Both the position numbers and the translations under genes were made by a program. The notes under the pieces are model-generated. The model had not been told where the DNA came from, made no database searches, and saw nothing but the letters and a program-made list of their open reading frames with translations. A DNA stretch of 50,384 bases from Gimesia sp. (GTDB lineage: Bacteria > Planctomycetota > Planctomycetia > Planctomycetales > Planctomycetaceae), in assembly GCA_002706765.1 (NCBI GenBank), contig PAJV01000048.1:1-50384 (forward strand), in the 5' to 3' direction. Shown here in pieces: positions 15,904 through 40,829 of this stretch (positions within the stretch are counted from its first letter, which is position 1; every line of letters starts with the position of its first letter).

Positions 15904-16416
15904 ATGGGATTATTCTCCAGTAAAGAGTTTTCCAACTTAGAGGATTTATTTGTTGAGCAGATTCAGGATTTATACGATGCCGAAAACCGTCTCGTCGATG
16001 CCTTGCCCAAGATGGCTGAGGCCGCTTCCTGCCAGGAACTGAAGTCGGCGTTCCAGACGCATCTGGGCGAAACCAAAGAACATGTGAAACGCCTGGAGGC
16101 TGTCTTCAAGGGGATGGGCGTGGAGCCTAAGCGAGAATCCTGTGAAGCCATGAAAGGATTGATCAGCGAAGGTGAAGAAATGGTGCAGGCGAAGGGGGAT
16201 TCCAATGTCAAAGATGCTGCCTTGATCGCCGCGGCTCAACGTGTAGAGCATTATGAAATGGCCGGTTACGGCTCTGCCCGCAATTTTGCCCAGCGTCTGG
16301 GAAAAACCAATCTGGCTGAAATCCTGCAGGAAACGCTGGACGAAGAAGGTAACGCTGACAAAATTCTGACTCAAATCGCCGAAGAATCGACGAATAAAGC
16401 AGCAGCCCGCGCCTGA
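15904..16416 (+). CDS. YciE/YciF-like ferritin-fold protein (DUF892)
   Basis: A 170-residue four-helix-bundle protein of the YciE/YciF (DUF892) family, which has a ferritin-like fold and is linked to stress responses in Enterobacteria. Characteristic parts are LEDLFVEQIQDLYDAENRLVDALPKMAEAAS, SAFQTHLGETKEHVKRLE, AAQRVEHYEMAGYGSARNFA and ILQETLDEEGNADKIL, which carry the Glu/His residues expected of a diiron site. AGGAG lies 8 bases before the ATG at 15904 (MGLFSSKEF). A longer upstream frame from 15682 is not supported. A terminator follows at 16430. Metal binding is inferred, not shown. Confidence 0.88.
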   Translation: MGLFSSKEFSNLEDLFVEQIQDLYDAENRLVDALPKMAEAASCQELKSAFQTHLGETKEHVKRLEAVFKGMGVEPKRESCEAMKGLISEGEEMVQAKGDSNVKDAALIAAAQRVEHYEMAGYGSARNFAQRLGKTNLAEILQETLDEEGNADKILTQIAEESTNKAAARA

Positions 16417-16429
16417 TGATAATATCTCC

Positions 16430-16470
16430 GCCTCCTCACTGCTGGAGATCGGCGTGGGGAGGCTTGTTTA
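16430..16470 (+). terminator. Rho-independent terminator after the YciF-like gene
   Basis: GCCTCCTCAC (16430-16439) pairs with GTGGGGAGGC (16454-16463) over 10 bp with one G-U, and is followed by the T-rich TTGTTTA. It lies just after the 16416 stop. Confidence 0.7.
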
Positions 16471-16538
16471 ATGGATTGTTTAAAACCGGAGTGATAACAG
16501 AGAATGCTATCACAGTTATCAATTAAGGGATTTGAACC

Positions 16539-17147
16539 ATGAAAATACAAGTCTTATATGTTCTCTCTGCTGTCATTCCCGTGGCGACCTCAATGGTGTC
16601 CGCGGTCCAGTCAGACCTTAAAGAAACAGACTCTAAAACAACGCAGGCAGTAGCCGTAATAATGCCGACCAAAGAATTCAGTGTGAGTGGTATGGTTCAA
16701 CTGAAACAGAGTAAAGGCATGGTACACCTCACGGGTAAAATCGAAGGGCTTTCACCGGGCAAGCATGGATTTCACATTCATGAGTTTGGTGATATCAGTG
16801 CCGTCGATGGCAGTTCCGCGGGGGGACATTATGCTCCTGAAGGTCATCAACATGGGAAACCTGGTAAAAAAGAACATCATGCTGGCGACCTGGGAAATAT
16901 TACCGCCGATCAGAATGGCATCGCGGTGATCGATAAGCGGTCGGAGGATTTTAAGATTTCCGATGTGATTGGCCGCTCCATTGTCGTTCATGCCGGTGCC
17001 GATGATCTGACCAGTCAGCCTTCCGGAGATGCCGGTCCGCGCGCCGGTCTGGGCGTGATTGGAATTGCCAAATCAGAACCGAAAGCGAAAGCTGACTTAC
17101 CGGCTCGAACCCGGGGATCGAATCGCCAGAAAACCCGTGCCTTTTAA
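16539..17147 (+). CDS. sodC: Second Cu/Zn superoxide dismutase-like protein
   Basis: A 202-residue periplasmic SOD of the Cu/Zn type with an N-terminal signal peptide (VLSAVIPVATSMVSA). The metal ligands are present: His79, His81, His97, His105, His114, Asp117 and His151 (HGFHIHEFGD, AGGHYAP, HHAGDLGN, VVHAG), with Arg168. The disulfide Cys pair is again missing (GDI for GDC; AGLGVI for ACGVI). An AAGGGA lies about 8 bases upstream of the ATG. It is similar to, but not the same as, the lipoprotein form at 7.9 kb. The C-terminal tail (about 30 residues) is basic and looks disordered. A long inverted repeat follows at 17192. Confidence 0.88.
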   Translation: MKIQVLYVLSAVIPVATSMVSAVQSDLKETDSKTTQAVAVIMPTKEFSVSGMVQLKQSKGMVHLTGKIEGLSPGKHGFHIHEFGDISAVDGSSAGGHYAPEGHQHGKPGKKEHHAGDLGNITADQNGIAVIDKRSEDFKISDVIGRSIVVHAGADDLTSQPSGDAGPRAGLGVIGIAKSEPKAKADLPARTRGSNRQKTRAF

Positions 17148-17191
17148 GATAAACGTTTTTTAAAACAATGATTGCTCTTACCAGTTATTCG

Positions 17192-17251
17192 GGCTCGGCC
17201 AGATACCGTTCTGTAAATACAGGAAGGTTGGCTTCACAATCTGGCCGGGCC
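17192..17251 (+). terminator. Hairpin after the SodC-like gene, possible terminator
   Basis: GGCTCGGCCAGAT (17192-17204) pairs with ATCTGGCCGGGCC (17239-17251) over 13 bp with one G-U, with a 34-base loop, and is followed by TTTATAT. The T-run is weak, so this may be a terminator or a cruciform. Confidence 0.5.
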
Positions 17252-17258
17252 TTTATAT

Positions 17259-17354
17259 CCTGAAACATATCACACTTAACAATAATGTCTCTCGATCTGT
17301 TATAATCAATCGAACTGGTCCGGGAGATGTTTGAGTAAAACGGGACACAGTCTT
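17259..17354 (+). repeat. Dispersed 96-bp repeat, copy A, upstream of coxB
   Basis: This stretch aligns without gaps over 96 bases to 40878-40973, with 23 mismatches (76% identity). The right end is best conserved: GTAAAAC, then GGACACAGTCTT. It includes TATAAT, with TTAACA 19 bases upstream, so it may carry a promoter pointing into the oxidase operon. The reverse complement reads AAGACTGTGTCC..., resembling an IS terminus, so a remnant IS end is the other reading. Confidence 0.65.
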
Positions 17355-17455
17355 ACGATATCATTTCAAACCACACTCCTGCATTGCAGGTGATTCGATC
17401 TTTCCAGATTATCATAATAATATAGACACAACGAACGTATCGCTTACCCGCCACT

Positions 17456-18466
17456 ATGAAAGTGATTGAAATGCCTGCTGCGAGTGACGCTGTCAAGGCT
17501 AAGCTAATCTGTGCAGGAATTCTAATTTCTGGTTGTTCCGGTTCGCAATCAGCACTGAGTCCTGCAGGAGCAGGAGCCGAGCAGATTGCAAGTCTGTTCT
17601 GGTGGATGGCCGGTGGCGCAACAATCATCTGGGTGATCATGATCGCCCTGTCGATCTATACCCTGCATCTGAATCCTGACGCCCATCATCGGCAGAAATC
17701 CGCCCTGTTTATTATCGGGGGAGGTGCGATCGCTCCCACGATCATTCTGACCATTCTTTTGATCTATGGTTTAAATCTTCTGCCTGCACTGCTGGCTCGA
17801 CCACCGGCGGGGACTCTGCAGATTGAGGTGCAGGGCTACCAATGGTGGTGGCGTGTGCGTTATCCAAATCAAAGCGGGGAGCCGATCGAACTGGCTAATG
17901 AAATTCGACTGCCTCGCGGCGAACCGGTTGAATTTATCCTCTCCAGCAAAGATGTCGTGCATTCGTTCTGGATTCCCTCACTGGGCGGAAAAGTAGACAT
18001 GATTCCCGGCCGTACCACGCACCTCACCCTGCATCCCACCAAGACCGGACGTTTTCGGGGGGCCTGTGCTGAGTATTGTGGTGCGTCTCATGCCTACATG
18101 AATTTTACGGTCGATGTCGTCGAAAAAGCGGAGTATGACGAGTGGCTGGCGCAGCAGTCTGCAGACAGACTGGCACCGCGAAACGAAGCCGCTGAAAGAG
18201 GAGAGGAGCTATTCCTGCAAACGGGCTGTGGTGCCTGTCACACCATACGGGGAACGGAGGCCGACGGAACCATCGGACCGGATTTGACACATATCGGCAG
18301 TCGTAATTCCCTGGGAGCAGACATGTTTGTGAATAATCGGGAAAACCTTCAGAACTGGATCGCGCATGTCTCTGCATTAAAACCCGGTGTGAAGATGCCT
18401 GAATTTCGCGCGCTCAGTGACGATGAATATCAATCTCTGTCAAAGTATTTAGAACAACTGAAATGA
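17456..18466 (+). CDS. coxB: Cytochrome c oxidase subunit II with C-terminal cytochrome c (caa3-type)
   Basis: The electron-input subunit, with a cupredoxin CuA domain and a fused haem c. A lipobox-like LISGC puts a Cys at 27, followed by two membrane helices (about 42-68 and 83-105). The CuA ligands His169, Cys204, Cys208, His212 and Met215 are present (VVHSFWIP, CAEYCGASHAYM). A C-terminal cytochrome c domain has Cys258, Cys261, His262 (CGACH) and the likely axial Met314 (GVKMPEF). The aromatic patch YQWWWRV is intact. The gene starts a six-cistron-like run of overlapping frames, and its stop overlaps the next start in an ATGA. Copy A of the 96-bp repeat lies upstream. Confidence 0.92.
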   Translation: MKVIEMPAASDAVKAKLICAGILISGCSGSQSALSPAGAGAEQIASLFWWMAGGATIIWVIMIALSIYTLHLNPDAHHRQKSALFIIGGGAIAPTIILTILLIYGLNLLPALLARPPAGTLQIEVQGYQWWWRVRYPNQSGEPIELANEIRLPRGEPVEFILSSKDVVHSFWIPSLGGKVDMIPGRTTHLTLHPTKTGRFRGACAEYCGASHAYMNFTVDVVEKAEYDEWLAQQSADRLAPRNEAAERGEELFLQTGCGACHTIRGTEADGTIGPDLTHIGSRNSLGADMFVNNRENLQNWIAHVSALKPGVKMPEFRALSDDEYQSLSKYLEQLK

Positions 18467-21018
18467 AGCCGGACGATATGGATTCTGAACCCTCCAATTT
18501 GATCTCAGAGCAGGATCGTGATTCTGCAGAATACCGTCGGCAGTCTGCAGAGAGACTGTTGAAGGCCTGGGAAACGCCGCGCGGCTGGCGCTACTGGTCG
18601 GCAGTCAATAATTCCGAAGTGGGCTTGTGGTATACCGTCGCTTCGTTCTGTTTCTTTTTGTTTGGTGGCGTGCTGGCGCTGCTGATGCGGATTCAGCTTG
18701 CGGTGCCTGGTAATACATTTTTAACCGCTGATCAGTACAATCAGATCTTTACGATGCACGGCTCGGTGATGATGTTCCTGTTTGCCGTTCCCATTTTTGA
18801 AGCGTTTTCCATCATGGTGCTCCCTGAGATGCTGGGCGCACGCGATCTGCCTTTTCCCCGTTTGTCAGCGTACGGCTTCTACAGTTTCGTGATCGGTGGA
18901 ATCTTTGTCTGTGGTTCCCTGTTTTTCGACGCCGCTCCCAAAGGGGGCTGGTTTATGTATCCCCCGCTGACGACTTCATATCAACCTGGCATAGGCGCTG
19001 ATATCTGGTTACTGGGATTAACTTTCATTGAAATTGCCTCGATTGCTGCCGCGATTGAATTGATAGTGGGTGTCCTCAAATGTCGTCCCCCTGGAATGCG
19101 GATCAATCTGATTCCCCTGTATTGCTGGTACATCCTGGTTGTTGCGGGAATGATTCTGTTTGCCTTTCCGCCACTGATTGCAGGTGACATTCTGCTGGAG
19201 ATGGAACGCGCGTTTGACTGGCCTTTCTTCGATCCCCAGCGGGGCGGTGACCCGCTGTTATGGCAGCATCTCTTCTGGATCTTTGGACATCCGGAAGTCT
19301 ATATCGTGTTTCTGCCCTCGGTTGCTCTGATGGCGATGATGGTACCGACGTTTGCCAGAACTCCAATGGTCGGATACAGCTGGGTCGTGCTGTCGGCGGT
19401 GGGGACCGGTTTTCTCAGTTTCGGGTTGTGGGTCCATCATATGTTTACCACTGGTCTGCCTGGCATCTCGATCGGCATCTTTTCCGCGGCTTCGCAGGCC
19501 GTGGCGATTCCAACCGGAGTGCAACTCTTCTGTTTCCTGGCAACGTTTACTGCAGGAAATGTCAAACGCTCAGTCTGTCTGCATTTCATTTTTGCAGGTC
19601 TCGCGACGTTTATCATCGGCGGATTAACGGGAGTAATGGTGGCGGTGGCGCCCTTTGATTTTCAGGCGCATGATACTTTCTTCATCGTAGGCCATCTGCA
19701 TTACGTTTTGATTGGAGGAACCATCTTTCCGATTATGGCGGGCTTTTACTATTTCTTTCCGCTGGTCAAGGGAAAACAGCTTTCGGAACGGATTGGCAGA
19801 ATTGTTTTCTGGCTCGTATTGATCGGCTTCAATATTACATTTTTTCCTATGCATATCACCGGTTTACTGGGAATGCCCCGTCGCGTATTTACCTATCCTG
19901 CTGACATCGGCTTCGATACTCTGAACCTGATCTCCAGCCTGGGATCGATCATTCTGGCAGCCGGTTTCGTGCTCTTTTTATATGATGTCGTACGGCCTCG
20001 CAGGAACCAGCCGCTTTCGGAGCGAAATCCCTGGAAGGCGGGAACACTGGAGTGGCTGGCACAAATGCCGGATCAACCCTGGGGCGTACGCACGATTCCC
20101 ATCATCAACAGTCGTTATCCGTTATGGGAACAACCTGACTTTGTGCGCGATGTAGATGAAGGTCGTTTTTATCTGCCCGACGCGGTGGAAGGGAGACGGG
20201 AGACGCTGGTCACAACGGTGATCGATGCGGAGCCCATCCAATGCCTGCGGGTAGGAGGGCCGACTTTTCTCACATTTTTTGCCGCATTATTTACGGGTGG
20301 GTTTTTTATTTTTGCGACCTATCACTGGTGGCTGGCTGCAATTCTCAGTGGATTGATCGCGATCGTTGTCATTCTGACCTGGGTCTGGACCGGCACCGCG
20401 GAAATACCCGAAAAAGAAATGAAAGATGTGGGGCTGGGACTCTCGTTGCCCTTGTATATTTCCGGTCCCAGTGCCGTCGGCTGGTGGGCCATGTTTATCA
20501 CGATGACTGCTGACATCACGGCATTCGTCTCACTGATCTTTGGTTATTTCTTTTACTGGACGATTCACGATGATTTTCCTCCCCAACCGCTGCCGGGGCC
20601 GGGAGTCTTCTGGCCGGTCACGGGACTGGTACTGGTGATGATCGCGTATGGCTTGACGTTGCTCTCCCGACGTTGGAATCGGGCGGGGTATACCAGCGCC
20701 TTTTATCTGTCGCTCTCGCTGGCCGCCGTTTTTTCACTGGCAGGTGGCTGTGCGCTACTGGCCGGCCCCTGGTTGACCGGCCTTGATCCCACACAGCATG
20801 TCTACCCGGCAATCGTCTGGGTGTTGACGGGCTGGACTGTGTTGCATGTGATCCTGGGAATCATCATGCAATTGTACTGCCTGGCGAGAAGGGCGGCAGG
20901 GAAAATGACGGACCGCTGGGATGCGGACATTGTGAATGTCTCACTGTACTGGCATTTTCTGGCTTTGACTGTGGTTATGACTGTCGGCGTGATCGCAGGT
21001 TTTCCCAGTGTATCATGA
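18463..21018 (+). CDS. ctaD: Cytochrome c oxidase fused subunits I+III
   Basis: The catalytic haem-copper subunit, 851 residues, fused to a subunit III-like tail. Subunit I ligands match the aa3 numbering closely: His99 (haem a), His276 and Tyr280 in FGHPEVY (CuB and cross-linked Tyr), His325/His326 (CuB), His411 (haem a3) and His413 (haem a). Glu278 of the D-channel end is present. Subunit I ends near 550. A linker with two further helices (about 600-640) follows, and the subunit III-like part at about 670-851 contains AVGWWAMFITMTADITAFVS and WHFLALTVVMTVGVIAGF. No separate coxC follows, consistent with the fusion. It overlaps coxB by four bases and the next gene by four. Confidence 0.94.
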   Translation: MKPDDMDSEPSNLISEQDRDSAEYRRQSAERLLKAWETPRGWRYWSAVNNSEVGLWYTVASFCFFLFGGVLALLMRIQLAVPGNTFLTADQYNQIFTMHGSVMMFLFAVPIFEAFSIMVLPEMLGARDLPFPRLSAYGFYSFVIGGIFVCGSLFFDAAPKGGWFMYPPLTTSYQPGIGADIWLLGLTFIEIASIAAAIELIVGVLKCRPPGMRINLIPLYCWYILVVAGMILFAFPPLIAGDILLEMERAFDWPFFDPQRGGDPLLWQHLFWIFGHPEVYIVFLPSVALMAMMVPTFARTPMVGYSWVVLSAVGTGFLSFGLWVHHMFTTGLPGISIGIFSAASQAVAIPTGVQLFCFLATFTAGNVKRSVCLHFIFAGLATFIIGGLTGVMVAVAPFDFQAHDTFFIVGHLHYVLIGGTIFPIMAGFYYFFPLVKGKQLSERIGRIVFWLVLIGFNITFFPMHITGLLGMPRRVFTYPADIGFDTLNLISSLGSIILAAGFVLFLYDVVRPRRNQPLSERNPWKAGTLEWLAQMPDQPWGVRTIPIINSRYPLWEQPDFVRDVDEGRFYLPDAVEGRRETLVTTVIDAEPIQCLRVGGPTFLTFFAALFTGGFFIFATYHWWLAAILSGLIAIVVILTWVWTGTAEIPEKEMKDVGLGLSLPLYISGPSAVGWWAMFITMTADITAFVSLIFGYFFYWTIHDDFPPQPLPGPGVFWPVTGLVLVMIAYGLTLLSRRWNRAGYTSAFYLSLSLAAVFSLAGGCALLAGPWLTGLDPTQHVYPAIVWVLTGWTVLHVILGIIMQLYCLARRAAGKMTDRWDADIVNVSLYWHFLALTVVMTVGVIAGFPSVS

Positions 21019-21425
21019 GGACCATCATGGAGCAGGAACAACATCATTCTGAAAAATATCATGAAAGGCATGAACGCATCTGGTTCATGTTTCTACCACC
21101 GTTTGTCTGGGCGCTGCACCTGCTGGCCTGTTACCTGACCGCTGCGATCTGGTGCGCGAAATATTCCGGTTCGGCAAACAGTTTTACTACCGTGAGAATC
21201 GCGATTGGAATTTATACGCTATTGGCAATCGCCGTGATCGGCTACTCTGGCTGGAGCGGTTTTCGTCGACATCGACATCTTGCTGCAGATCTTTCTCATA
21301 ATGACGATACGCCTCTGGATCGTTACCGCTTTCTGGGAATGGCAACTTTTCTGCTCGCCGCTTTGAGTACTGTTGCGACCTTGTTCGTAGCGACGGTGGC
21401 ACTGTTTTTTGGAAATTGTGACTAA
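21015..21425 (+). CDS. Small membrane protein of the oxidase operon
   Basis: A 136-residue protein with about three helices (WFMFLPPFVWALHLLACYLTAAIW, VRIAIGIYTLLAIAVIGYSGW, FLGMATFLLAALSTVATLFVATVALFF). The N-terminus is His/Glu-rich (MEQEQHHSEKYHERHERIW). No known domain is visible. The first ATG overlaps the ctaD stop. A second ATG at 21027 (MEQEQHH) has AGGA five bases upstream and may be the real start. The next gene starts on the A of its TAA stop. Its place between subunit I+III and CtaG suggests a role in oxidase assembly or as a small subunit, which is an inference. Confidence 0.7.
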   Translation: MRTIMEQEQHHSEKYHERHERIWFMFLPPFVWALHLLACYLTAAIWCAKYSGSANSFTTVRIAIGIYTLLAIAVIGYSGWSGFRRHRHLAADLSHNDDTPLDRYRFLGMATFLLAALSTVATLFVATVALFFGNCD

Positions 21426-22141
21426 TGAGAACTGGCATGACTGCAATCACGAAGACGAATCAAACGACAAGTGCGGATAACAACCATTCCTCTGCCAGTT
21501 ATCGGAAGGTGCAGGTCTGGTTGCTGCTGGCAGGGCTGCTTAGCCTGGCGGTTGCCTGGTCGGGGCCACTTCCTGCGCTGGCACATCATGCGTTTTTTGC
21601 GCACATGACCATGCATATGCTGGTTGTGGCTGTAGCAGCTCCCTTGCTCAGTCTGGCTATTGCCGGCAGTCGGTTTGATCCCGTGATCAAGTACCCCGTG
21701 TTCTTCGCACCGATCCCGGCGTCGGTGGCAGAACTGATTATTGTCTGGGCATGGCATGCACCAGGGCTGCATCATCTGGCTCGGATGACAGCCTGGGGAC
21801 TCGTTGCAGAACAGGGGTCCTTTCTGCTGGCGGGCGTCGCAGTCTGGATATCCGCTTTCGGCGGGACGATCCTCCGCAGTCGTGCGCGGAGTGCCGCGGG
21901 AGTAGTCGGGCTGCTGTTGACGTCCATGCATATGACCCTGCTGGGCGCTTTACTGGCACTCGCACCACGTTCGGTTTATACACATCATCAGGGATTTTCA
22001 ACCATGTCTGCGCTGCAGGATCAGCATCTGGGAGGTGCAATCATGCTGGTCGTGGGCGGGATTGTTTACCTTTCCGGAGGGATCTGGCTTACAGTGGATT
22101 TATTGTGGATCAAAAGTCAGCGAGAGGAGTTGTCATCATGA
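21425..22141 (+). CDS. ctaG: CtaG-type cytochrome c oxidase assembly factor
   Basis: A membrane protein of the caa3_CtaG family (PF09678), which is required for caa3 oxidase assembly in Bacillus. Visible marks are ALAHHAFFAHMTMHMLVVAVAAPLLSL with a conserved His/Met set, IIVWAWHAPGLHHLARMTAWG, and GLLLTSMHMTLLGALLALAPRSVY. About six to seven helices are predicted. The ORF starts on the last base of the preceding TAA and ends by overlapping the cytochrome gene (ATGA). Copper-handling Met/His residues are present, but the precise step it performs is inferred from the family. Confidence 0.87.
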   Translation: MRTGMTAITKTNQTTSADNNHSSASYRKVQVWLLLAGLLSLAVAWSGPLPALAHHAFFAHMTMHMLVVAVAAPLLSLAIAGSRFDPVIKYPVFFAPIPASVAELIIVWAWHAPGLHHLARMTAWGLVAEQGSFLLAGVAVWISAFGGTILRSRARSAAGVVGLLLTSMHMTLLGALLALAPRSVYTHHQGFSTMSALQDQHLGGAIMLVVGGIVYLSGGIWLTVDLLWIKSQREELSS

Positions 22142-23277
22142 AACGACGCTGGAAAATCATTGGTACTCTAGGCCTGGTTGCTGTCATCGGCGGCGCGCTG
22201 GTCGTCGTCAGTGGCGTGATTCCTGTGAAAGCCAGTTCGGGACACTGGGAAATCACCAGATGGTTTCTGAATTTTACCAAAGAGCGATCTGTCGCGACGC
22301 ACAGCACCGGAATCAAAGTTCCTGACCTTGAGGATCGGGCACTGATCATTAAAGGAGCAGGCCATTATGAAACCGGTTGTCGCGTCTGTCACGGTAAACC
22401 GGACAGCGTGCGCCCGCGACTGGTATCGCTGATGACTCCCCAGCCGCCTGATTTGCAAAAAATCGTCCCGCAGCGTGAACCCCAGGAACTTTTCTATGTT
22501 GTGAAACACGGGATTAAAATGACAGGGATGCCTGCCTGGCCCGAACTGAAGCGCGATGATGAAATCTGGCCTGTCGTTGCGTTTCTGCTGCAATATTCTG
22601 AACTGGATCTTGCAGAATACGATGAACTGGTCTGGGGGGAACATCAAAAGCAGAGTGATCAGTCGATCGATTCAGCAGAAGGAACTTCTTTACCAGTTCC
22701 GCACCTGGTAATCGAAGAATGCGCGGGCTGTCATGGCGTAGACGGGCAGGGGAGGGGACTGGGCGTATTTCCCCGACTGGCAGGACAAAATGAGGCTTAT
22801 TTACGGGTCTCCCTGGAAGCCTATCATCATGACAATCGCTTGAGCGGTACCATGGAGGTAATTGCCAGCAGGATGAATCAGAAAGAGATCCAGGAGATAT
22901 CACGTTATTATTCTCGTCTGCCCCCGTTTCCTTCGAAGGAAAATCAGAACGGAGAAGCATCGAGTAACCGCGATTCTGAAGCAGAAGTTGCGTCATTTGA
23001 ACGCGGTGCCGAGATCGCTGCAGAAGGCATTGCAGATCAGGATGTCCCCGCCTGTGCAGACTGTCACTCTACGACACGCAAGCCATTCAAAAATGCTTAC
23101 CCGACTCTGATCGGACAGTACCAGGATTATCTCGCGCTGCAGATCAAACTGTTTCAAAACCGCAACCGCGGCGGTTCCAAGTCAGCCAATCTGATGCATG
23201 CGGCTGTCGACGGACTGAAGCCGGATCAGATTCGCGACGTCAGTTATTATTACTCGGTGCTTCCTGATAAAGAATAA
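22138..23277 (+). CDS. Tri-haem cytochrome c
   Basis: A 380-codon secreted or membrane-anchored cytochrome with one N-terminal helix (residues 8-28) and three CXXCH sites: Cys81-His85 (CRVCH), Cys195-His199 (CAGCH) and Cys306-His310 (CADCH). Candidate axial Met are in KMTGMP, MEVIASRM and NLMHA. The first domain is of the oxidase-associated single-haem type, and domains 2 and 3 resemble diheme c4/c553-type repeats (GQGRGLGVFPRLAGQNEAYL, then YPTLIGQYQDYLALQIKLF). The true start at 22138 overlaps ctaG by four bases. A longer frame from 21751 is not a gene start. It probably feeds electrons to the caa3 oxidase, which already has a fused cytochrome c. Confidence 0.87.
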   Translation: MKRRWKIIGTLGLVAVIGGALVVVSGVIPVKASSGHWEITRWFLNFTKERSVATHSTGIKVPDLEDRALIIKGAGHYETGCRVCHGKPDSVRPRLVSLMTPQPPDLQKIVPQREPQELFYVVKHGIKMTGMPAWPELKRDDEIWPVVAFLLQYSELDLAEYDELVWGEHQKQSDQSIDSAEGTSLPVPHLVIEECAGCHGVDGQGRGLGVFPRLAGQNEAYLRVSLEAYHHDNRLSGTMEVIASRMNQKEIQEISRYYSRLPPFPSKENQNGEASSNRDSEAEVASFERGAEIAAEGIADQDVPACADCHSTTRKPFKNAYPTLIGQYQDYLALQIKLFQNRNRGGSKSANLMHAAVDGLKPDQIRDVSYYYSVLPDKE

Positions 23278-23540
23278 CCCGTTTCTCAAATCAGAATTGT
23301 CTGAACCGGTGAATTCCCGCCGAGCAGATTGTTCAAAGAGAGAACAGTCAAAGTCGATTCTCGCTGGCACAGACCGTCATTATTTCCGCGAAGGTTACCG
23401 AAGTCCTTGCGCTGAATGCTCTGATGATTTCCTGACGGAATTGGTACGCGAAATGCTGTGATCACTGATAAAAGACTTCTACGAAAAATCTTACGACTCA
23501 TTTTATTTGACTCGAATCAGTAGCACAAAGGAAACGTATT

Positions 23541-24428
23541 ATGCCCCGCCAACAGCCTACGCCGGAATTTCCTCCCCAGGGACTGGAAAAACCTGGAATT
23601 GAAGAAGCGATGGATCCTCATCCGCATTTCGAAGCCCCCGATTACCGAGCCGCAAATAAGCTGGAGGGAAAGGTAGCGTTGATTACAGGTGGAGATTCCG
23701 GAATCGGGCGTTCTGTCGCAACGTTGTTTGCCCGCGAAGGTGCCTGTATTGCGCTGACCTATCTGGAAGAAGAGCAGCAGGATGCGGAAGCCATTCGTAA
23801 CTACATTCAACAGACGGTCGGCAGCAACGGTGGCTGTGATCAGGTCCTGCTGATTTGCGGTGATGTCACTGATGCTTCCTTCTGCAAGTCTGCGGTGGAG
23901 CAAACGGTATCCGAGTATGGTCACTTGGATATTCTTGTGAATAATGCCGCTTACCAGCAGCACCAGGATGGGATCGACGATATCAGTGAAGAACAGTGGG
24001 ACCATACTTTCAAGACGAACATTTATGGATATTTTCATATGGTGCAGGCTGCTTTAAAGCATATGAAAGAGGGTGCGAATATCATCAATACCGGTTCGAT
24101 CACCGGTCTGGAGGGCAGTGGTCGTCTGCTGGATTATTCAGCAACTAAAGGAGCGATCCATGCCTTTACCAAGTCTCTGGCCCAGAATCTGGTGGATCGG
24201 AAAATCCGGGTGAACTGTGTCGCGCCAGGACCGGTGTGGACGCCATTGAATCCGGCGGAACGTTCCGAGGAAGAAGTAAAGGACTTTGGTAGCGGCTCTC
24301 CCTATGGACGTCCCGCCCAGCCGGAAGAGATTGCGCCGGCTTACGTGTACTTCGCTTCCAACGCGGATTCCAGCTATGTCACCGGGGAAGTTCTGACCAT
24401 CCTCGGAGGCGCGACGCGCGCCGGCTGA
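23541..24428 (+). CDS. SDR oxidoreductase, general-stress (YhdF/GSP39) type
   Basis: A short-chain dehydrogenase of 295 residues. It carries the extended N-terminus of the GSP39 subfamily, with PPQGLEKPGIEEAMDPHP before the fold. The cofactor loop is ITGGDSGIGRSVA (Thr49-Gly56), then NNAAY (134-138), with catalytic Ser186 and the Tyr199/Lys203 pair (LDYSATKGA). It probably uses NAD(P) and acts on a sugar alcohol or aldehyde; the substrate is not known. AAAGGAAACG lies upstream of the ATG. It is followed by the small Rho-N-like gene in the same direction. Confidence 0.9.
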   Translation: MPRQQPTPEFPPQGLEKPGIEEAMDPHPHFEAPDYRAANKLEGKVALITGGDSGIGRSVATLFAREGACIALTYLEEEQQDAEAIRNYIQQTVGSNGGCDQVLLICGDVTDASFCKSAVEQTVSEYGHLDILVNNAAYQQHQDGIDDISEEQWDHTFKTNIYGYFHMVQAALKHMKEGANIINTGSITGLEGSGRLLDYSATKGAIHAFTKSLAQNLVDRKIRVNCVAPGPVWTPLNPAERSEEEVKDFGSGSPYGRPAQPEEIAPAYVYFASNADSSYVTGEVLTILGGATRAG

Positions 24429-32221: not shown

Positions 32222-33520
32222 ATGAATCCGATTCCACAATTGCAGAAATGGGACAGTACTCTTGATTTGTTGAGAGACCCTTATGGATTCATTTCCAGAA
32301 ACTGTCAGAACGAACAGTCCGATCTGTTTGAGGCGCGACTGTTGTTGCAGAAAACGTTCTGCATGCGAGGACAGGAAGCCGCTCAGGTGTTTTATGATCC
32401 CGATCTTTTTTGTCGAGCGGGAGCGGCACCCAGGGCAGTCATGAAAACGTTGTTTGGCCAGGGAGGCGTTCAGGGGCTGGATGAAGACGCACATCGACAT
32501 CGCAAGCAGATGTTTTTGTCGATCATGACGACCGAGCAGATCGATCATTTAGAAGTGCTGACGGAACGACAGCTGTCAGCAGCCGTACCTCGCTGGAAAG
32601 AGATGGCGGAAGTACCTCTGTACGAAGAATTCCAACGGGCACTGACAATCGCTGTCTGCGACTGGGCAGGGGTTCCCCTCGCGGATTCCGAAGTGGAGTT
32701 ACGAACCAGGCAGTTGACGTCACTGTTCCACGATGCAGCGAAAATCGGCATGGGACATTTTCGTGCACGTATGGCGCGGCGACAGACGAATGCCTGGATC
32801 ACAGACTTGATAAAACAAATCCGAGCCCAGGAGATTTCGCTCCCCGCACACAGCCCGGCGTCGACCATCGCCTGGCATCGTGATCTGAAAAATAATCTGC
32901 TGGAACCGCAAGTCGCCGCCGTCGAACTGTTGAATCTATTGAGACCGGTCGTCGCGATTTCCGTGTATATGACGTTAATCGCCCATGCTCTGCATTTTCA
33001 TCCCGATTGTCGGGAAAAACTGAAATCTGGTTCTGATGAATATGTACGAGCTTTTGTGCAGGAAGTGCGACGCTACTATCCATTTTTTCCTTTTACAGCG
33101 GCGATTGTGCAGACTTATTTTGAATGGAACGGTTTTGAATTTCCACGGGGGAAGCGTGTACTGCTCGATTTGTATGGCACGAATCACGACGGTCGCATCT
33201 GGAAAGAGCCGGAGCTGTTTCAACCCGATCGATTTTCGCAGCGGGAACCGACTCCCTATGATTTCATCCCCCAGGGAGGTGGTGAATATGCGTTAAATCA
33301 TCGCTGCCCGGGAGAATGGATCACGGTCAGTCTGATGCAACTGACTTCTCGGTTTCTGACACAAAAGATTCACTATGAAGTGCGAGATCAGAAACTGGAG
33401 ATCGACTTCTCTCAAATGCCGGCTTTACCGCGAGACCCGTTCATGATTTCCTCGGTACGTGCCGCAGGAAGTCAGCCCGTGGCCACGTCGCCTTCTCAGC
33501 CGCATCGCGTCCGGATTTAA
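32222..33520 (+). CDS. CYP152-family cytochrome P450 (fatty-acid peroxygenase)
   Basis: An H2O2-using P450 of the CYP152 family, 432 residues, close in length to P450 BSbeta and OleT. The haem Cys362 lies in the family signature FIPQGGGEYALNHRCPGEW. Arg241-Pro242 (LLRPVVAI) is the family's carboxylate-binding pair that replaces the usual threonine/acid. Gln84 (GVQGLDEDAHRHRK) occupies the position that is Gln in the hydroxylase BSbeta and His in the decarboxylase OleT, so alpha/beta-hydroxylation is the likelier chemistry. It has no membrane anchor. Weak SD. It needs peroxide, which would fit the nearby SODs, but that link is an inference. Confidence 0.9.
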   Translation: MNPIPQLQKWDSTLDLLRDPYGFISRNCQNEQSDLFEARLLLQKTFCMRGQEAAQVFYDPDLFCRAGAAPRAVMKTLFGQGGVQGLDEDAHRHRKQMFLSIMTTEQIDHLEVLTERQLSAAVPRWKEMAEVPLYEEFQRALTIAVCDWAGVPLADSEVELRTRQLTSLFHDAAKIGMGHFRARMARRQTNAWITDLIKQIRAQEISLPAHSPASTIAWHRDLKNNLLEPQVAAVELLNLLRPVVAISVYMTLIAHALHFHPDCREKLKSGSDEYVRAFVQEVRRYYPFFPFTAAIVQTYFEWNGFEFPRGKRVLLDLYGTNHDGRIWKEPELFQPDRFSQREPTPYDFIPQGGGEYALNHRCPGEWITVSLMQLTSRFLTQKIHYEVRDQKLEIDFSQMPALPRDPFMISSVRAAGSQPVATSPSQPHRVRI

Positions 33521-36084: not shown

Positions 36085-36504
36085 TCGTCTCTCGACTGTC
36101 TCCGGTATGACCGTAGCGTTTCCCAGGTCATTGGGACCGCGTGTCATTGAATGATAGACGCTCTCATTCAATGTGATGCGCAATCGACGTTCACAAATTC
36201 AAGCCCTCTGCTGCCGAGAGAGAGCAGAAGGTGCTTCAGAAGCCCCTCGATGCGTTTCTGGCCTGGTAGATTTCGGTCCGACACCGCTTCTGTACAAGCT
36301 GTTTGCTGAACGACCAGTCTGGCTGATCGTGACTCGCGCAAGGCAGCCTGACTCCTCAATTTACACGTGTTTTCAGTGTTCAAACAGGGAGAAAACGGCT
36401 GTAAACAAAAGCTTAGAATATTGGCACATTTTTCGCTATGCATCTGGTATCCCTGCTTCAGGGCTCCAATCCCACCTGCCCAGTATAACCAGAGGTCGCA
36501 GCCG
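36085..36504. other. Intergenic region before the SbnA-like unit
   Basis: A 420-bp region with a perfect 10-bp inverted repeat at 36145-36173. Two frames overlap it (a 111-codon plus frame and a 136-codon minus frame), but neither has family-like content. The region likely holds the promoter for the three-gene unit. Confidence 0.5.
36145..36173. promoter_or_regulatory. Inverted repeat, possible operator
   Basis: CATTGAATGA (36145-36154) and TCATTCAATG (36164-36173) form a perfect 10-bp inverted repeat with a 9-bp spacer. It follows the MDR stop by 60 bp and has no T-run, so an operator is more likely than a terminator. It precedes the three-gene unit by about 330 bp. Confidence 0.35.
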
Positions 36505-37596
36505 ATGATTGACAACCGAAAAAAAACAGTGGAGAAAGCCCAGGCCCGGGAAGGTGTGCTGGAAACCATCGGGGCCACGCCTTTGATCCGCCTGCGTCGC
36601 TATCTGGGCAGTCCCGATGTGGCCCTCTTCGCCAAAATGGAGTGCTTTAACCCGGGAGGCAGTGCGAAAGATCGGCCGTCGCGTGCCATGATCGAAGAAG
36701 CCTTTCAGACGGGAGAGATTAATTCTCATACCACGATCATTGAGTCTTCTTCAGGAAATATGGGGATTGGACTGGCTCAAGTCTGCCGGTATTACGGGCT
36801 CCCCTTTATTTGTGTGGTAGACGTACGGGCTCAACCTCAGAATATTGCGATTATGAAAGCACTGGGTGCAGAAATCGAAATGGTGACGGAGCCACTGGAA
36901 GGTGACTTCCTGAAAGCCAGACTGGCTAAGGTTAAATCGCTGCTGAAGACAATCCCTGATTCGTTCTGGCCTAATCAGTATGGTAACAGACATAATCCTG
37001 CAGCGCATGAAAACGGTACGATCAGAGAGATCGACGAGGCGCTTAATGGTCAGCTCGATTATCTGTTTGTTGCCACCAGCAGTACGGGAACCATTCGTGG
37101 TTGCCGCGATTACCTGCGGAAGCGCGGGCGAAAAACAAAGATCGTCGCCGTCGATGCCATGGGAAGTGTGTTGTTTGGCGGACAGGCAGGCGAGAGACGC
37201 ATCCCCGGCCTGGGCGCAGGGAATATTCCCGACCTGGCAGAAGGTCAGCAGTTCGATGCCGTACGGCGCGTCTCTGAACTGGACTGCGTCGCCGGCTGCT
37301 GGCGCATGGTTCAAAAAGAAGCGATGCTCGTCGGTGGTTCGGCAGGGGGAGTCCTGGAAACGGTTCGCGCAATGAAACACGAACTGCACGACAAAATCTG
37401 TGCGGTGATTTTACACGATTCAGGCACTCGTTACCTGGATACCATCTTTTCCCCGGAGTGGGTGGAAAGCCAATTGGGTTATACCGAATCCGAAGTGCAA
37501 CAACGTCTGGAGAGTAATCTCTGTGTCGATTGTGGCCTGCGTGATCGTGGTTTTTCCTTTCACCCTCCTCAGTACTCTGATTTGTCCCAATTCTGA
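36505..37596 (+). CDS. SbnA/Y4xP-like PLP-dependent beta-replacement enzyme
   Basis: A fold-type II PLP enzyme of 363 residues, related to cysteine synthase. The PLP lysine is Lys55 in NPGGSAKDRPS, the phosphate loop is SSSGNMGIGLA and the ring-binding loop is GGSAGGVLET. The closest characterised type is SbnA of staphyloferrin B synthesis, which makes N-(1-amino-1-carboxyl-2-ethyl)glutamate from O-phosphoserine and glutamate, together with NGR234 Y4xP. The C-terminal extension holds CVDCGLRDRGFSFHPPQYSDL. A start at 36505 (MIDNRK) is used, with AGAGG upstream; the longer frame lacks support. The stop shares one base with the next start (TGATG). Whether the product is diaminopropionate is inferred. 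Confidence 0.82.
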   Translation: MIDNRKKTVEKAQAREGVLETIGATPLIRLRRYLGSPDVALFAKMECFNPGGSAKDRPSRAMIEEAFQTGEINSHTTIIESSSGNMGIGLAQVCRYYGLPFICVVDVRAQPQNIAIMKALGAEIEMVTEPLEGDFLKARLAKVKSLLKTIPDSFWPNQYGNRHNPAAHENGTIREIDEALNGQLDYLFVATSSTGTIRGCRDYLRKRGRKTKIVAVDAMGSVLFGGQAGERRIPGLGAGNIPDLAEGQQFDAVRRVSELDCVAGCWRMVQKEAMLVGGSAGGVLETVRAMKHELHDKICAVILHDSGTRYLDTIFSPEWVESQLGYTESEVQQRLESNLCVDCGLRDRGFSFHPPQYSDLSQF

Positions 37597-39308
37597 TGCC
37601 CGATCTCATTGAACAGCAAGGTCCACTTACCGCCCCCGCGAGTAAGAGAGAACCGTTTCGTATCGCCCTGGCCGGATGTGGTCCCAAAGGCATGTACTGC
37701 CTGGAACGATTGATTCAGCGTCTGAATCAATCTGACTCTCGTGATGAAATTCAAATTATCATATTTGATCCCGAGAATGTGCCGGGCGCCGGCCCCGTGT
37801 ATCACCCCGATCAACCACACTATCTGCGGATGAATTATGCATCCGGCTTAATTGATACCTGGTCTGAATCTCCGGGCTCTCGAGAGAAAGACGAGTACCC
37901 TGACCTGGTTCACTGGCTGCAGCGGCATTATCCGGAAATGGCTGATCCGAACGGGTTTATCCCGCGTGCTGTTACGGGGGAATATCTTGCGGACTGTTAC
38001 AAGAAAATCCTGCAGTGTTGCCCTGCTTCCTGCAGCATTGAACATAGACAGCAGAAAGTGATTGATATTCAACGAATTGAACACCGCTGGATGTTGAAAA
38101 CGAATGCGTCTGCAGAAATCTATGACGAAGTCTTGATCTCCATCGGACATGAAGGGTGGCGGAGTGCTGCAGATAACCAGGACCAGCCTGAAACAGTCAT
38201 ACCGCATGTATTTCCCGTCACCGAGATGCTGACTTACGGTCGAATTCCTGCCGGCTCGCGCGTCGCTGTGCGTGGTTTTGCACTCACATTTATCGATGCC
38301 TGCCTGGCTTTGACGGAGGGTCGGGGAGGGTCTTTTTCCTGCCAGCAGGGCGAATGGAAATATCAACGCTCGGGGAATGAAGTGGACTGTATCCTGCCTT
38401 TCTCGCGTAGCGGTCGGCCGATGTTTCCCAAGCCTGACAAGCATCGGCTCTCACTGCCGGATCAGCTGGAAACGATCTGGGAGCAGGGGCGGTCTCGATT
38501 GATGCATCTGGATCAGCCGGAACAGGGACTGGAATTCAAGAGCATGATCTGGCCGGTCATTCTGCAGACCGCGGCCAAAGCGCTGGTGCTGGTCAATCCA
38601 GAGCAGTTTCCCGAGATGAAGCCGACGACGAAGCAACTGGCTCACTGGTACAATCAATGGACCAGCAGCACCTGTTCGGGAGCAGAAGTCTTCGCACTGT
38701 TAAAACATGCTTACCATGTCGCGACAGGGAGGGAACAACCGGATGAAATCTGGGCAGTGGGTGAAACCTTTCGGCAGCTCTATTCCGCACTCGTACGCAG
38801 AATCAGTCACGGCGGCTTATCTGTTTCCAGCTGGCATGAGTTTTCAGAATGTGCAGTCGAAATGGAACGGCTCGCGTTCGGGCCTCCTGCGGAGAATGTC
38901 GGGCGGATGCTGGCGCTGATCGAAGCGGGTCTGATCAATCTGGATTTTCTGAAAGGTAGCGTGGTCCAGAAGGAGCATACGCTTAAACTGACACAGCAGG
39001 GCAGGGCGATTGACGTGGATCGACTCGTGCATGCTGTGATTCCTCACTCTCAACAGTTCGCGAAGGATTCGATCCTTTCGAAAATCATTTCTGCCGGATG
39101 GGCACGCTGTATCCAGGGAGCAGGGGGCATCGAAGTCAATCGATCTGGTCGTCCTGTTGCAGTCACTGGGGAGATCATGCGCGGACTGGCCGTCATCGGC
39201 CGGGCTACGGAAGGCTGTGTTCTGGGGAACGACACCCTGACGCGACTGTTACATAAGCATCCCGATCAGTGGGCTCGTTCTGTCTGTCGTCGCATTCAGC
39301 AAAGGTGA
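37596..39308 (+). CDS. FAD/NAD(P)-binding protein of the SbnA-like unit
   Basis: A 570-residue cytoplasmic protein of the NAD_binding_9 type (PF13454). It has an N-terminal Rossmann loop (RIALAGCGPKGMYCLERLI), then DPENVPGAGPVYHPDQPHYLRMNYASGLID, as in N-hydroxylase-like flavoproteins. A second nucleotide region (VAVRGFALTFIDACLALTEGRGG) follows near 220. The C-terminal half (about 330-570) matches no domain that I recognise. It takes the position that SbnB, an NAD-dependent dehydrogenase, takes in staphyloferrin B clusters, but is of a different family. It starts at the TGATG overlap with the previous gene and ends 6 bp before the decarboxylase gene. The substrate is not known. Confidence 0.78.
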   Translation: MPDLIEQQGPLTAPASKREPFRIALAGCGPKGMYCLERLIQRLNQSDSRDEIQIIIFDPENVPGAGPVYHPDQPHYLRMNYASGLIDTWSESPGSREKDEYPDLVHWLQRHYPEMADPNGFIPRAVTGEYLADCYKKILQCCPASCSIEHRQQKVIDIQRIEHRWMLKTNASAEIYDEVLISIGHEGWRSAADNQDQPETVIPHVFPVTEMLTYGRIPAGSRVAVRGFALTFIDACLALTEGRGGSFSCQQGEWKYQRSGNEVDCILPFSRSGRPMFPKPDKHRLSLPDQLETIWEQGRSRLMHLDQPEQGLEFKSMIWPVILQTAAKALVLVNPEQFPEMKPTTKQLAHWYNQWTSSTCSGAEVFALLKHAYHVATGREQPDEIWAVGETFRQLYSALVRRISHGGLSVSSWHEFSECAVEMERLAFGPPAENVGRMLALIEAGLINLDFLKGSVVQKEHTLKLTQQGRAIDVDRLVHAVIPHSQQFAKDSILSKIISAGWARCIQGAGGIEVNRSGRPVAVTGEIMRGLAVIGRATEGCVLGNDTLTRLLHKHPDQWARSVCRRIQQR

Positions 39309-39314
39309 GGTCGC

Positions 39315-40829
39315 ATGGAGTCTGTCAGATCTGATCAGTCCTCAAAAAATTCGAGTCTCGTATTGGAAGACACGCAGGCGATGCTGCGGGAATACTGCCA
39401 GGGGCTTGTTCCGCTACCCGCCAGACTGGAAACCTGGATGTTGTCGTTGTGCAGCAGTCCGGTCCTGCCTGAAATGGTGCACGAGTACGGTTCCCCGCTG
39501 AATGTACTCTCTCTTCAGCCGTTCCAGAAGAATTTAAACCTGCTGCGGGAGACAGCCCAGGCATTTGGTCTGGATTTCGAAGTCTATTTTGCCCGCAAAG
39601 CGAATAAATGCCTGACGTTCGTGGAAGCGGCCAGTCAGCAGGGCTGTGGGATCGATACCGCCAGTACGAATGAAATCAGACAGTCGCTTGACCTGGGAGT
39701 TCCCGCTGAAAAAATCATTTGCACAGCGGCTGTTAAAAGTGAGGAATTGTTGCATTTGTGTATCAATGCGGGGATTACGATTGCCATTGATAACACGGAT
39801 GAGCTGTTACTCACAGAACGTCTGGCGCGGGAAGCGAAACGCACGACGAAGATCGCATTAAGGATCAGCGGGTTTGCTTATGAGGGCAAAAAGCTGAACT
39901 CGCGGTTTGGGTTCGATATTGCAGAAGTCCCTTCTGTGGTTCAACGTTTCTGGTCGCAGGAAACTGAAACGGTAAGTACTCTGTCGATTACGGGACTGCA
40001 TTTTCATCTGGATGGGTACAGCCGACACCAGCGGATTGCGGCGATTCGACAACTGCTGCCTTACATTGATGATTTGCGGTCGCAGCAGCATCCGGTTGTG
40101 TTTCTGGACATGGGAGGTGGCTTTCCCATGAGTTATCTCGACTCGAAAGCTGCCTGGGAGCGTTTCTGGCGAGAACACCGTCAGGCTCTGCTGGGAAATC
40201 GAAATCCGCTGACCTGGGAGAATCATGGCCTGGGCCTGATTGCAGATGAGGGCAGACTGCTGGGTAAGCCTAAGTGTTATCCCTATTACCAATCGCCAGT
40301 TCAGCAGGACTGGTTACAGGATCTGTTGCAGGCAGACTGCGAAGACACAACCATTGCCAAAGCACTCTGCCGCCGCAAGCTTCAACTGCGGTGTGAACCT
40401 GGACGAAGTGTCTTAGATGGTTGTGGCCTGACCGCGGCACGAGTAGAATTTCGTAAGCAGCGCAGCGATGGCAGCTGGTTCATCGGGCTTTCCATGAATC
40501 GCACGCAGTGCCGTACCAACAGCGATGATTTTCTGGTAGATCCTTTGTTGATTCCGGTAGATAAAGAGAAGACTGTGTCGGAGACAGCACCAGCGATGGA
40601 AGGTTACCTGGTGGGTGCGTACTGTAATGAATCGGAATTCTTAAGCCTGAGGCGTTTGCAGTTTCCACAGGGGGTGTCGATTGGCGATCTGGTTGTGTTT
40701 CCAAATACAGCCGGTTATTTCATGCATTTTCTGGAGAGCCGATCACATCAGTTTCCACTTGCCAGAAACGTGTTTTTTGATCCGGAAACGGAACAGGTCG
40801 ACCTTGATCCGATAGATCAGGAGATTTGA
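39315..40829 (+). CDS. Y4yA-like PLP-dependent decarboxylase
   Basis: A fold-type III PLP enzyme (Orn/DAP/Arg decarboxylase 2) of 504 residues. PLP Lys lies in FEVYFARKANKCLTFVE; GIDTASTNEI and GLHFHLDGYS follow the DAP-decarboxylase pattern; RCEPGRSVLDGCGLTAARV is the EPGR phosphate loop. The C-terminal catalytic Cys region reads AYCNESEFLSLRRL, with Glu where Asp is common, then GDLVVFPNTAGY. Y4yA of Rhizobium NGR234 lies beside the SbnA-like Y4xP, and SbnH of staphyloferrin B is in the same fold family. It is the third gene of the unit, 6 bp after the FAD protein gene, with an AGGTGAGG before the ATG. The substrate is unproven. Confidence 0.82.
   Translation: MESVRSDQSSKNSSLVLEDTQAMLREYCQGLVPLPARLETWMLSLCSSPVLPEMVHEYGSPLNVLSLQPFQKNLNLLRETAQAFGLDFEVYFARKANKCLTFVEAASQQGCGIDTASTNEIRQSLDLGVPAEKIICTAAVKSEELLHLCINAGITIAIDNTDELLLTERLAREAKRTTKIALRISGFAYEGKKLNSRFGFDIAEVPSVVQRFWSQETETVSTLSITGLHFHLDGYSRHQRIAAIRQLLPYIDDLRSQQHPVVFLDMGGGFPMSYLDSKAAWERFWREHRQALLGNRNPLTWENHGLGLIADEGRLLGKPKCYPYYQSPVQQDWLQDLLQADCEDTTIAKALCRRKLQLRCEPGRSVLDGCGLTAARVEFRKQRSDGSWFIGLSMNRTQCRTNSDDFLVDPLLIPVDKEKTVSETAPAMEGYLVGAYCNESEFLSLRRLQFPQGVSIGDLVVFPNTAGYFMHFLESRSHQFPLARNVFFDPETEQVDLDPIDQEI

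What the first reader, a model, noticed from the sequence alone, without database searches (positions are those of the whole stretch)
36505..40829. Three-gene SbnA-like/FAD/Y4yA-like unit, possibly a new amino-acid-derived metabolite pathway
Three genes are packed with 1-bp and 6-bp joins: a cysteine-synthase-fold enzyme like SbnA, an FAD/NAD(P)-binding protein, and a type III PLP decarboxylase like Y4yA/SbnH. SbnA and SbnH types belong to staphyloferrin B synthesis, but the NIS synthetases and SbnB are missing here, and a flavoprotein of another family sits in the middle. The set suggests a beta-amino or diamino acid is made, oxidised and decarboxylated, which I do not recognise as a known pathway. 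The nearest remembered relative is the y4xP-y4yA region of Rhizobium NGR234.
Basis: partly seen in the sequence, partly recalled or inferred. Interest (0 to 1): 0.75.

Follow-up and report, generated by a model that had tools for sequence, protein, structure and literature searches.

The report
Three-gene N-oxygenated diamine pathway cassette
Three joined genes, found in the same order in many distant bacteria, appear to build a small nitrogen-rich molecule from phosphoserine by joining, oxidising and decarboxylating it; the product is not known and no description of the set was found.

Summary
In detail: three + strand genes (36505-37596, 37596-39308, 39315-40829) joined by a 1-base overlap and a 6-base gap. 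Of 90 loci holding the middle gene, 84 carry all three in this order and strand, in seven phyla by hand assignment; in 9 of the 84 two of the genes are fused. Gene 1 is SbnA-type: the three O-phosphoserine-binding residues of S. aureus SbnA are together in 83 of 85. Gene 2's best structural match is FzmM, an NADPH/O2-dependent aspartate N-hydroxylase; the catalytic Asn is kept (50 of 50) but much of the aspartate-binding cluster is not, so another substrate is likely. Gene 3 is a fold-III PLP decarboxylase. The own genome has no NIS synthetase and no SbnB over cut-off; no exporter or receptor recurs beside the trio. Best reading: phosphoserine is joined to an amino acid, the new amine N-oxygenated, the alpha-carboxyl removed. 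Substrates, product and intracellular use are inferred.

The parts
36138..36180 (+). imperfect inverted repeat (20-nt arms, 80% complementary) between the upstream reductase gene and the trio; possible terminator, suggesting that the trio is its own transcription unit
   Evidence: function inferred
36505..37596 (+). SbnA-type PLP enzyme, predicted O-phospho-L-serine + amino acid beta-substitution (363 aa)
   Evidence: TIGR03945 383 bits over cut-off 350; best PDB match S. aureus SbnA 5d84, E 1.7e-71; Arg132/Tyr152/Ser185 equivalents present
37596..39308 (+). FAD/NAD(P) flavoprotein, FzmM-like N-hydroxylating monooxygenase (570 aa)
   Evidence: PF13454; model pLDDT 93.5; Foldseek FzmM 8cp2 E 3.8e-36, TM 0.77; profile hit to 8cp2 E 3.5e-71; catalytic Asn conserved 50 of 50
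39315..40829 (+). Y4yA-type fold-III PLP decarboxylase (504 aa)
   Evidence: PF02784; invariant Lys95, Pro-Gly-Arg 362-364, Cys437 in 45 of 45; model pLDDT 92.2, best fold matches diaminopimelate decarboxylases

Best explanation
The three genes are a self-contained biosynthetic cassette. Step 1 (residues support it, substrate pair inferred): the SbnA-type enzyme makes the aminoacrylate of O-phospho-L-serine and adds the amine of an amino acid (glutamate in S. aureus SbnA), giving an N-(2-amino-2-carboxyethyl)-amino acid. Step 2 (enzyme class supported, substrate inferred): the FzmM-like flavoprotein uses NADPH and O2 to N-oxygenate the new beta nitrogen, in the slot that an SbnB-like or opine dehydrogenase gene fills in other Y4yA clusters; this may leave an N-hydroxy compound or break it through a nitrone. 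Step 3 (class supported, substrate inferred): the Y4yA enzyme, which needs a free alpha-amine to bind PLP, removes the alpha-carboxyl. The product would be an N-oxygenated 2-aminoethyl (ethylenediamine-type) compound. As no exporter, receptor or synthetase recurs beside the trio, it is more likely used inside the cell than secreted; this last step is the weakest.
For: 84 of 90 loci with the same order and strand. SbnA+FAD in one ORF in 7 loci, FAD+Y4yA in 2, pointing to hand-over in this order. Co-inheritance r 0.85-0.87. In four congeners and four family members, 19.5-kb stretches around the trio share none of 13 neighbour genes of the window, except one DUF1559 protein at 35% in one (tblastn E 1e-15), so the cassette is just these three genes. 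OPS-pocket residues Arg, Tyr and Ser in 85, 85 and 83 of 85, against Arg + Ser/His/Tyr + Gly in all 10 SbnA-like proteins of nine other Y4yA clusters. A ParB-domain gene related to the one at the head of the NGR234 cluster overlaps the SbnA gene in 3 of 90 loci, L020, L022 and L082; that SbnI-type proteins make phosphoserine is recalled. FzmM is the best fold and profile match over nearly the full length. Of nine other Y4yA clusters read, eight have an ornithine-cyclodeaminase-like (SbnB-like) or octopine dehydrogenase gene beside Y4yA and SbnA; L095 has neither.
Against: No substrate or product was tested. PF13454 is broad, and N-oxygenation is inferred from one solved homologue at 22% identity. 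Arg577, another aspartate ligand of FzmM, lies beyond the alignment and was not mapped; a conserved Arg (43 of 50) near the C-terminus may be its counterpart, so the pocket may be less changed than the other residues suggest. Flavoprotein genes without the two partners occur in 4 of 90 loci (L036, L072, L077, L081), so it may act elsewhere too. Transporter families do occur as scattered neighbours (MacB/FtsX 3, ABC ATPase 3, BPD permease 2, FecCD 1, DctM 1 of 366), and genomes were not searched for exporters. Below its cut-off the SbnB model matches relatives in 35 more of 51 genomes, the own genome included, which could supply that activity. L029 and L031 have Gly at the Ser185 position.
Confidence: 0.45

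Rival explanations
1. The flavoprotein is a stand-in for SbnB: it oxidises the SbnA product to L-2,3-diaminopropionate plus 2-oxo acid without leaving an N-O bond, and Y4yA decarboxylates diaminopropionate to ethylenediamine.
For: The gene occupies the position of SbnB-like or octopine dehydrogenase genes in eight of nine other Y4yA clusters read; SbnB passes its cut-off in only 1 of 51 genomes searched; seven SbnA+FAD fusions.
Against: Closest fold and profile match is an N-hydroxylase and the Asn over flavin C4a is kept in 50 of 50.
Confidence: 0.22
2. The set makes a secreted metal chelator (aminopolycarboxylate metallophore like EDDS or rhizobactin) whose exporter and uptake genes lie elsewhere.
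For: Y4yA and SbnA-like genes sit in clusters with MATE/MFS, IucA/IucC, TonB or iron-ABC genes; N-hydroxy amines bind metals (general chemistry).
Against: Homologues of those exporters, of the TonB receptor and of IucA/IucC: 0 of 90 flavoprotein loci in the stretches held (single-sequence searches, E 1e-6; eight stretches of the window's relatives are under 5 kb); an iron-ABC permease lies within 5 kb in 2 of 90. PF04183 in 3 of 50 genomes and 0 in the own genome. Unlinked exporters were not searched for.
Confidence: 0.25
3. The flavoprotein works as FzmM/CreE itself: it makes nitrosuccinate (nitrite) from aspartate, which nitrosates a diamine made by the other two enzymes, as proposed for L-alanosine.
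For: Full-length homology to FzmM; L-alanosine joins diaminopropionate with CreE/CreD-type nitrite release, still debated (PMC11705231 and PMC7347517, passages).
Against: Arg412 is kept in 0, Asn413 in 2, Arg416 in 3 and Arg276 in 3 of 50. No lyase gene is part of the conserved trio; a search for a CreD-type lyase was not made.
Confidence: 0.1
4. Ordinary cysteine synthase, oxidoreductase and diaminopimelate decarboxylase that lie together by chance.
For: Fold families are common.
Against: Order kept in 84 of 90 loci and fusions; SbnA cut-off passed, cysteine-synthase and LysA cut-offs failed.
Confidence: 0.02

Closest known systems
Staphyloferrin B precursor pathway, SbnA + SbnB (+ SbnH) of Staphylococcus aureus
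   Same: SbnA-type first enzyme with all three phosphoserine-binding residues; a fold-III decarboxylase is present
   Different: an unrelated flavoprotein stands where SbnB would; no NIS synthetase in the own genome; SbnB below cut-off there; decarboxylase not close to SbnH
FzmM / CreE L-aspartate N-hydroxylases (fosfazinomycin, cremeomycin)
   Same: full-length fold and profile match, catalytic Asn
   Different: aspartate-binding cluster partly not conserved; linked to SbnA-type and Y4yA genes instead
y4yB-y4yA-y4xP-y4xO-y4xN-y4xM of Sinorhizobium fredii NGR234 and related Y4yA clusters
   Same: Y4yA and SbnA-like genes close together
   Different: redox gene is octopine dehydrogenase or ornithine-cyclodeaminase-like (none in L095); exporters in most and IucA/IucC in some; SbnA-like pocket is Arg + Ser/His/Tyr + Gly
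[S,S]-EDDS (aes genes, Amycolatopsis japonicum) and rhizobactin, ethylenediamine-containing chelators
   Same: predicted chemistry of a decarboxylated diaminopropionate unit
L-alanosine pathway
   Same: diaminopropionate-derived N-hydroxy intermediate is proposed (PMC11705231 passage)
   Different: carrier-bound diaminopropionate and a different putative hydroxylase (PMC7347517 passage); no Y4yA known to me

Membership tests
SbnA (TIGR03945) | score over the curated cut-off | tested here: met
   383 vs 350 bits
SbnA (TIGR03945) | Arg132, Tyr152, Ser185 that select O-phosphoserine | tested here: met
   present in the window; 85, 85 and 83 of 85 proteins
SbnA (TIGR03945) | glutamate as second substrate | not testable with these tools
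   needs an assay
Staphyloferrin B pathway | SbnB partner | tested here: not met
   own genome best 110 bits against cut-off 327; 1 of 51 genomes over cut-off, 36 of 51 with some match at E 0.001 or better
Staphyloferrin B pathway | NIS synthetases | tested here: not met
   0 in own genome; 3 of 50 other genomes
FzmM/CreE aspartate N-hydroxylase | full-length fold | tested here: met
   TM 0.77, E 3.8e-36; profile E 3.5e-71
FzmM/CreE aspartate N-hydroxylase | Asn62 over flavin C4a | tested here: met
   50 of 50 in A5; 88 of 90 in the wider set
FzmM/CreE aspartate N-hydroxylase | aspartate-binding Arg/Asn cluster | tested here: not met
   Arg13 and Arg266 stay basic (50 of 50 each) and Arg409 is kept in 38 of 50, but Arg412 in 0, Asn413 in 2, Arg416 in 3 and Arg276 in 3 of 50; Arg577 not mapped
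FzmM/CreE aspartate N-hydroxylase | nitrosuccinate lyase partner (CreD/FzmL) | not tested
   not part of the conserved trio; no dedicated search made
Fold-III PLP decarboxylase | PLP Lys, EPGR motif, catalytic Cys | tested here: met
   Lys95, Pro362-Gly363-Arg364, Cys437 invariant in 45 sequences, Glu361 in 90% or more; roles recalled from the fold family
Y4yA metallophore clusters | opine- or OCD-type dehydrogenase and MATE/MFS exporter | tested here: not met
   0 of 90 flavoprotein loci hit by those proteins in the stretches held
EDDS (aes) cluster | homology to AesA-D | not testable with these tools
   primary paper not held; no Amycolatopsis locus among the 79 fetched

The most novel reading that the evidence does not exclude
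A widespread, undescribed three-enzyme pathway makes an N-oxygenated 2-aminoethyl (ethylenediamine-type) metabolite from phosphoserine and an amino acid, with an FzmM-type monooxygenase that has changed substrate and taken over the redox slot of SbnB. It travels as a minimal cassette among at least seven phyla and serves inside the cell, possibly in stress protection.
Probability: 0.35. Interest if true: 0.8.

Novelty: new variant of a known kind. Interest (0 to 1): 0.62.

Why it matters
If right, three soluble enzymes would give a short, expressible route to a new class of N-oxygenated diamine, and the FzmM fold would be shown to work on something other than aspartate. The cassette occurs in planctomycetes, alphaproteobacteria, actinobacteria, Bacteroidota, verrucomicrobia, gemmatimonads and an acidobacterium, so the product is probably useful to many bacteria. 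The public labels in Sulfitobacter, "2,3-diaminopropionate biosynthesis protein SbnA", "FAD/NAD(P)-binding protein" and "Y4yA family", give no hint of a joint pathway and may suggest a siderophore.

Tried and rejected
Plain cysteine synthase: rejected (cut-offs, residues). NIS siderophore with scattered genes: no PF04183 in the own genome. EDDS operon: attractive chemically, but the paper is not held and no Amycolatopsis locus came back; left open. The first genome scan with the single protein found nothing; an alignment query did. Pseudosulfitobacter hits (46 plasmid records, one read, L008) were left out of the counts; the one read lacks the partners. Taurine/cysteate idea: NCBIfam cysteate synthase only 181 of 600 bits; dropped.

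Stress role: 366 neighbour proteins of 66 loci were scanned (368 listed, two long ones left out; nearest three ORFs of 110 aa or more on each side, some may not be real genes). DUF421 occurs 10 times; 57 copies in 51 genomes would give about 0.09 if genomes hold 4500 genes (my assumption; loci not independent). Catalase occurs 4 times and DUF2383 at least 3 times. The tool shows only the 25 commonest families per scan, so rarer ones are unseen, and most neighbours are diverse; a hint only. A GGAAC-N16-19-GTT promoter-like match upstream in 4 of 9 alphaproteobacterial loci (background 0.02 per 350 nt) came from loosening a pattern after a stricter one found none, and three of the four are Sulfitobacter; a hint only. 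My first notebook entry calls the Tsukamurella flavoprotein gene frame-broken; one search shows one open frame, so that entry is wrong. L085 has its flavoprotein match split over two ORFs and is still counted among the 84.

Papers: searches (lists capped; titles and abstract starts seen) showed no paper on this trio. Passages only were read in PMC3973906, PMC4881576, PMC4993170, PMC6103462, PMC10486106, PMC9252823, PMC7676072, PMC10320115, PMC9248904, PMC13379591, PMC12414870, PMC11705231, PMC7347517 and PMC3179956; abstract, outline and passages in PMC10404684.
Full report
What is there. The window carries three + strand genes: 36505-37596 (363 aa), 37596-39308 (570 aa) and 39315-40829 (504 aa). 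The ORF tool starts the first at an upstream in-frame GTG, 36367. The joins are a one-base overlap and a six-base gap. The window is one whole contig of a 7.9-Mb genome. An inverted repeat at 36138-36180 follows the upstream reductase gene, so the trio may be its own transcription unit.

Conservation. A scan of named genomes with an alignment of the middle protein matched 138 stretches, of which 119 encode relatives; the best 80 were kept as 79 loci. These were found by patterns taken from trio proteins, so the numbers describe close relatives, not the whole PF13454 family. With the window, eight loci of its family and two plasmid loci there are 90. In 84 all three genes lie in the same order and strand. 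Two more are cut by contig ends (L035, L089), and four have the flavoprotein alone (L036, L072, L077, L081). I assigned the 84 by hand: Planctomycetota 21, Bacteroidota/Balneolota 34, Actinomycetota 14, Alphaproteobacteria 9, Verrucomicrobiota 3, Gemmatimonadota 2, Acidobacteriota 1. The window and its eight unnamed family members are put in Planctomycetota only because their nearest named relatives are planctomycetes. SbnA and flavoprotein share one ORF in L046, L054, L058, L059, L068, L080 and L087; flavoprotein and Y4yA share one ORF in L047 and L057. Pairwise distances of the three proteins correlate at 0.85-0.87 over 81 loci (the 84 less L007, L056 and L085). Within the genus 5 of 17 genomes have the flavoprotein, within the family 9 of 170, own genome included. 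In eight of these relatives, 19.5-kb stretches around the trio share none of 13 tested neighbour genes of the window except one DUF1559 protein in one. So the unit is a patchily spread cassette of just three genes, and the P450, aldehyde dehydrogenase and glutathione-reductase-like genes beside it here are not part of it.

Gene 1. It passes the SbnA family cut-off and none of the cysteine-synthase ones. The best solved relative is S. aureus SbnA. A 2025 paper names Arg132, Tyr152 and Ser185 of SbnA as key for selective binding of O-phosphoserine (PMC12414870, passages). All three align with identical residues in the window (mapped by counting along the printed alignment). Over 85 proteins Arg and Tyr are invariant and Ser is present in 83 (exceptions L029 and L031). 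Ten SbnA-like proteins from nine other Y4yA clusters have Arg, then Ser, His or Tyr, then Gly. A ParB-domain gene overlaps the SbnA gene in L020, L022 and L082; I recall that the related SbnI makes phosphoserine.

Gene 2. A confident model (pLDDT 93.5) matches FzmM, an aspartate N-hydroxylase, far better than anything else: E 3.8e-36, TM 0.77, next SidA at 5e-12. The profile finds FzmM at 3.5e-71 over nearly its whole length. The FzmM paper (PMC10404684, abstract and passages) describes a class B monooxygenase that uses NADPH and O2, with Asn62 on the flavin C4a and an arginine/asparagine cluster around aspartate. In 50 relatives the Asn is invariant and Arg13 and Arg266 stay basic; Arg409 is kept in 38; Arg412 in 0, Asn413 in 2, Arg416 in 3 and Arg276 in 3. 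Arg577 lies beyond the alignment and could not be mapped; an Arg kept in 43 of 50 near the C-terminus may correspond. The same catalytic machinery with a partly altered pocket argues for N-oxygenation of a different, still partly anionic, substrate.

Gene 3. It is a fold-III PLP decarboxylase with the PLP lysine, the Pro-Gly-Arg motif and the catalytic-position cysteine invariant in 45 proteins (roles recalled). Its model matches diaminopimelate decarboxylases best; SbnH first appears at rank 42.

The missing pieces. No NIS synthetase in the own genome and in only 3 of 50 other genomes (50 of the 79 scanned loci given, one of them, L036, without the full trio). SbnB over its cut-off in 1 of 51; 36 of 51, that one and the own genome included, have some match to the model. 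Against proteins from other Y4yA clusters, 0 of 90 flavoprotein loci hit the MFS or MATE exporters, the TonB receptor, IucA/IucC, octopine dehydrogenase or ornithine-cyclodeaminase-like proteins; an iron-ABC permease lies within 5 kb in 2. Those were single-sequence searches at E 1e-6 in the stretches held, eight of which (the window's relatives) are under 5 kb; controls were hit in the source clusters, except that the short ParB protein's own locus was outside the control ORF set of 200 residues or more. Among 366 neighbours other transporter families do appear singly or a few times (MacB/FtsX 3, ABC ATPase 3, BPD permease 2, FecCD 1, DctM 1). So no exporter recurs, but unlinked or scattered ones are not excluded.

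How it probably works. In eight of nine other Y4yA clusters read, Y4yA and SbnA-like genes come with an SbnB-like or opine dehydrogenase gene. In the trio the flavoprotein holds that place. Since PLP decarboxylases need a free alpha-amine (general chemistry), oxygen should be added to the beta nitrogen made by the SbnA-type enzyme. That gives phosphoserine + amino acid, then N-oxygenation, then decarboxylation to an N-oxygenated aminoethyl compound. Shown: the genes, their linkage, fusions, families and residues. Inferred: every substrate, the order of steps 2 and 3, the product and its use.

Role. Neighbours are diverse. DUF421 membrane genes are over-represented (10 of 366 neighbours), with four catalases and at least three DUF2383 genes, and the window itself has DUF892, SodC and other stress-type genes within about 21 kb. 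This hints at a stress role but does not prove it.

Verdict.

Noticed in passing
L092:6579-13624 (NGR234), also L097 and L098: Y4yA, SbnA-like, octopine dehydrogenase and IucA/IucC genes in a row (an annotated MFS gene follows in L092 and L098) would fit synthesis of rhizobactin (lysine, ethylenediamine, alanine-type unit, malate). This is my inference; one search listed no paper.
   Followed up: partly
L093:4283-9774 (M. avium pMAH135); L094; L096; L100; L095: SbnA-like, ornithine-cyclodeaminase-like, Y4yA and MATE genes recur together in four of these; L095 has Y4yA and MATE beside an ArsR/SmtB-type regulator but no cyclodeaminase-like gene, suggesting metal-controlled small chelators.
   Followed up: partly
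L006:9844-10632, L028:7841-8629, L030:7798-8682: A conserved sulfotransferase gene precedes the trio on the same strand in three Sulfitobacter loci.
   Followed up: partly
L020, L022, L082 upstream of SbnA: ParB-domain (SbnI-type) gene overlapping the SbnA gene, making a four-gene unit.
   Followed up: yes
L036, L072, L077, L081: Close relatives of the flavoprotein without the SbnA and Y4yA genes beside them in the stretch held.
   Followed up: no
window 32222-33520: CYP152-type fatty-acid peroxygenase (543 bits, under the 600-bit NCBIfam cut-off) in a run of oxidoreductase genes.
   Followed up: no
window 15682-24428: DUF892, Cu/Zn superoxide dismutase, caa3-type oxidase genes and a short-chain dehydrogenase in a row, stress-type content upstream of the trio.
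   Followed up: partly
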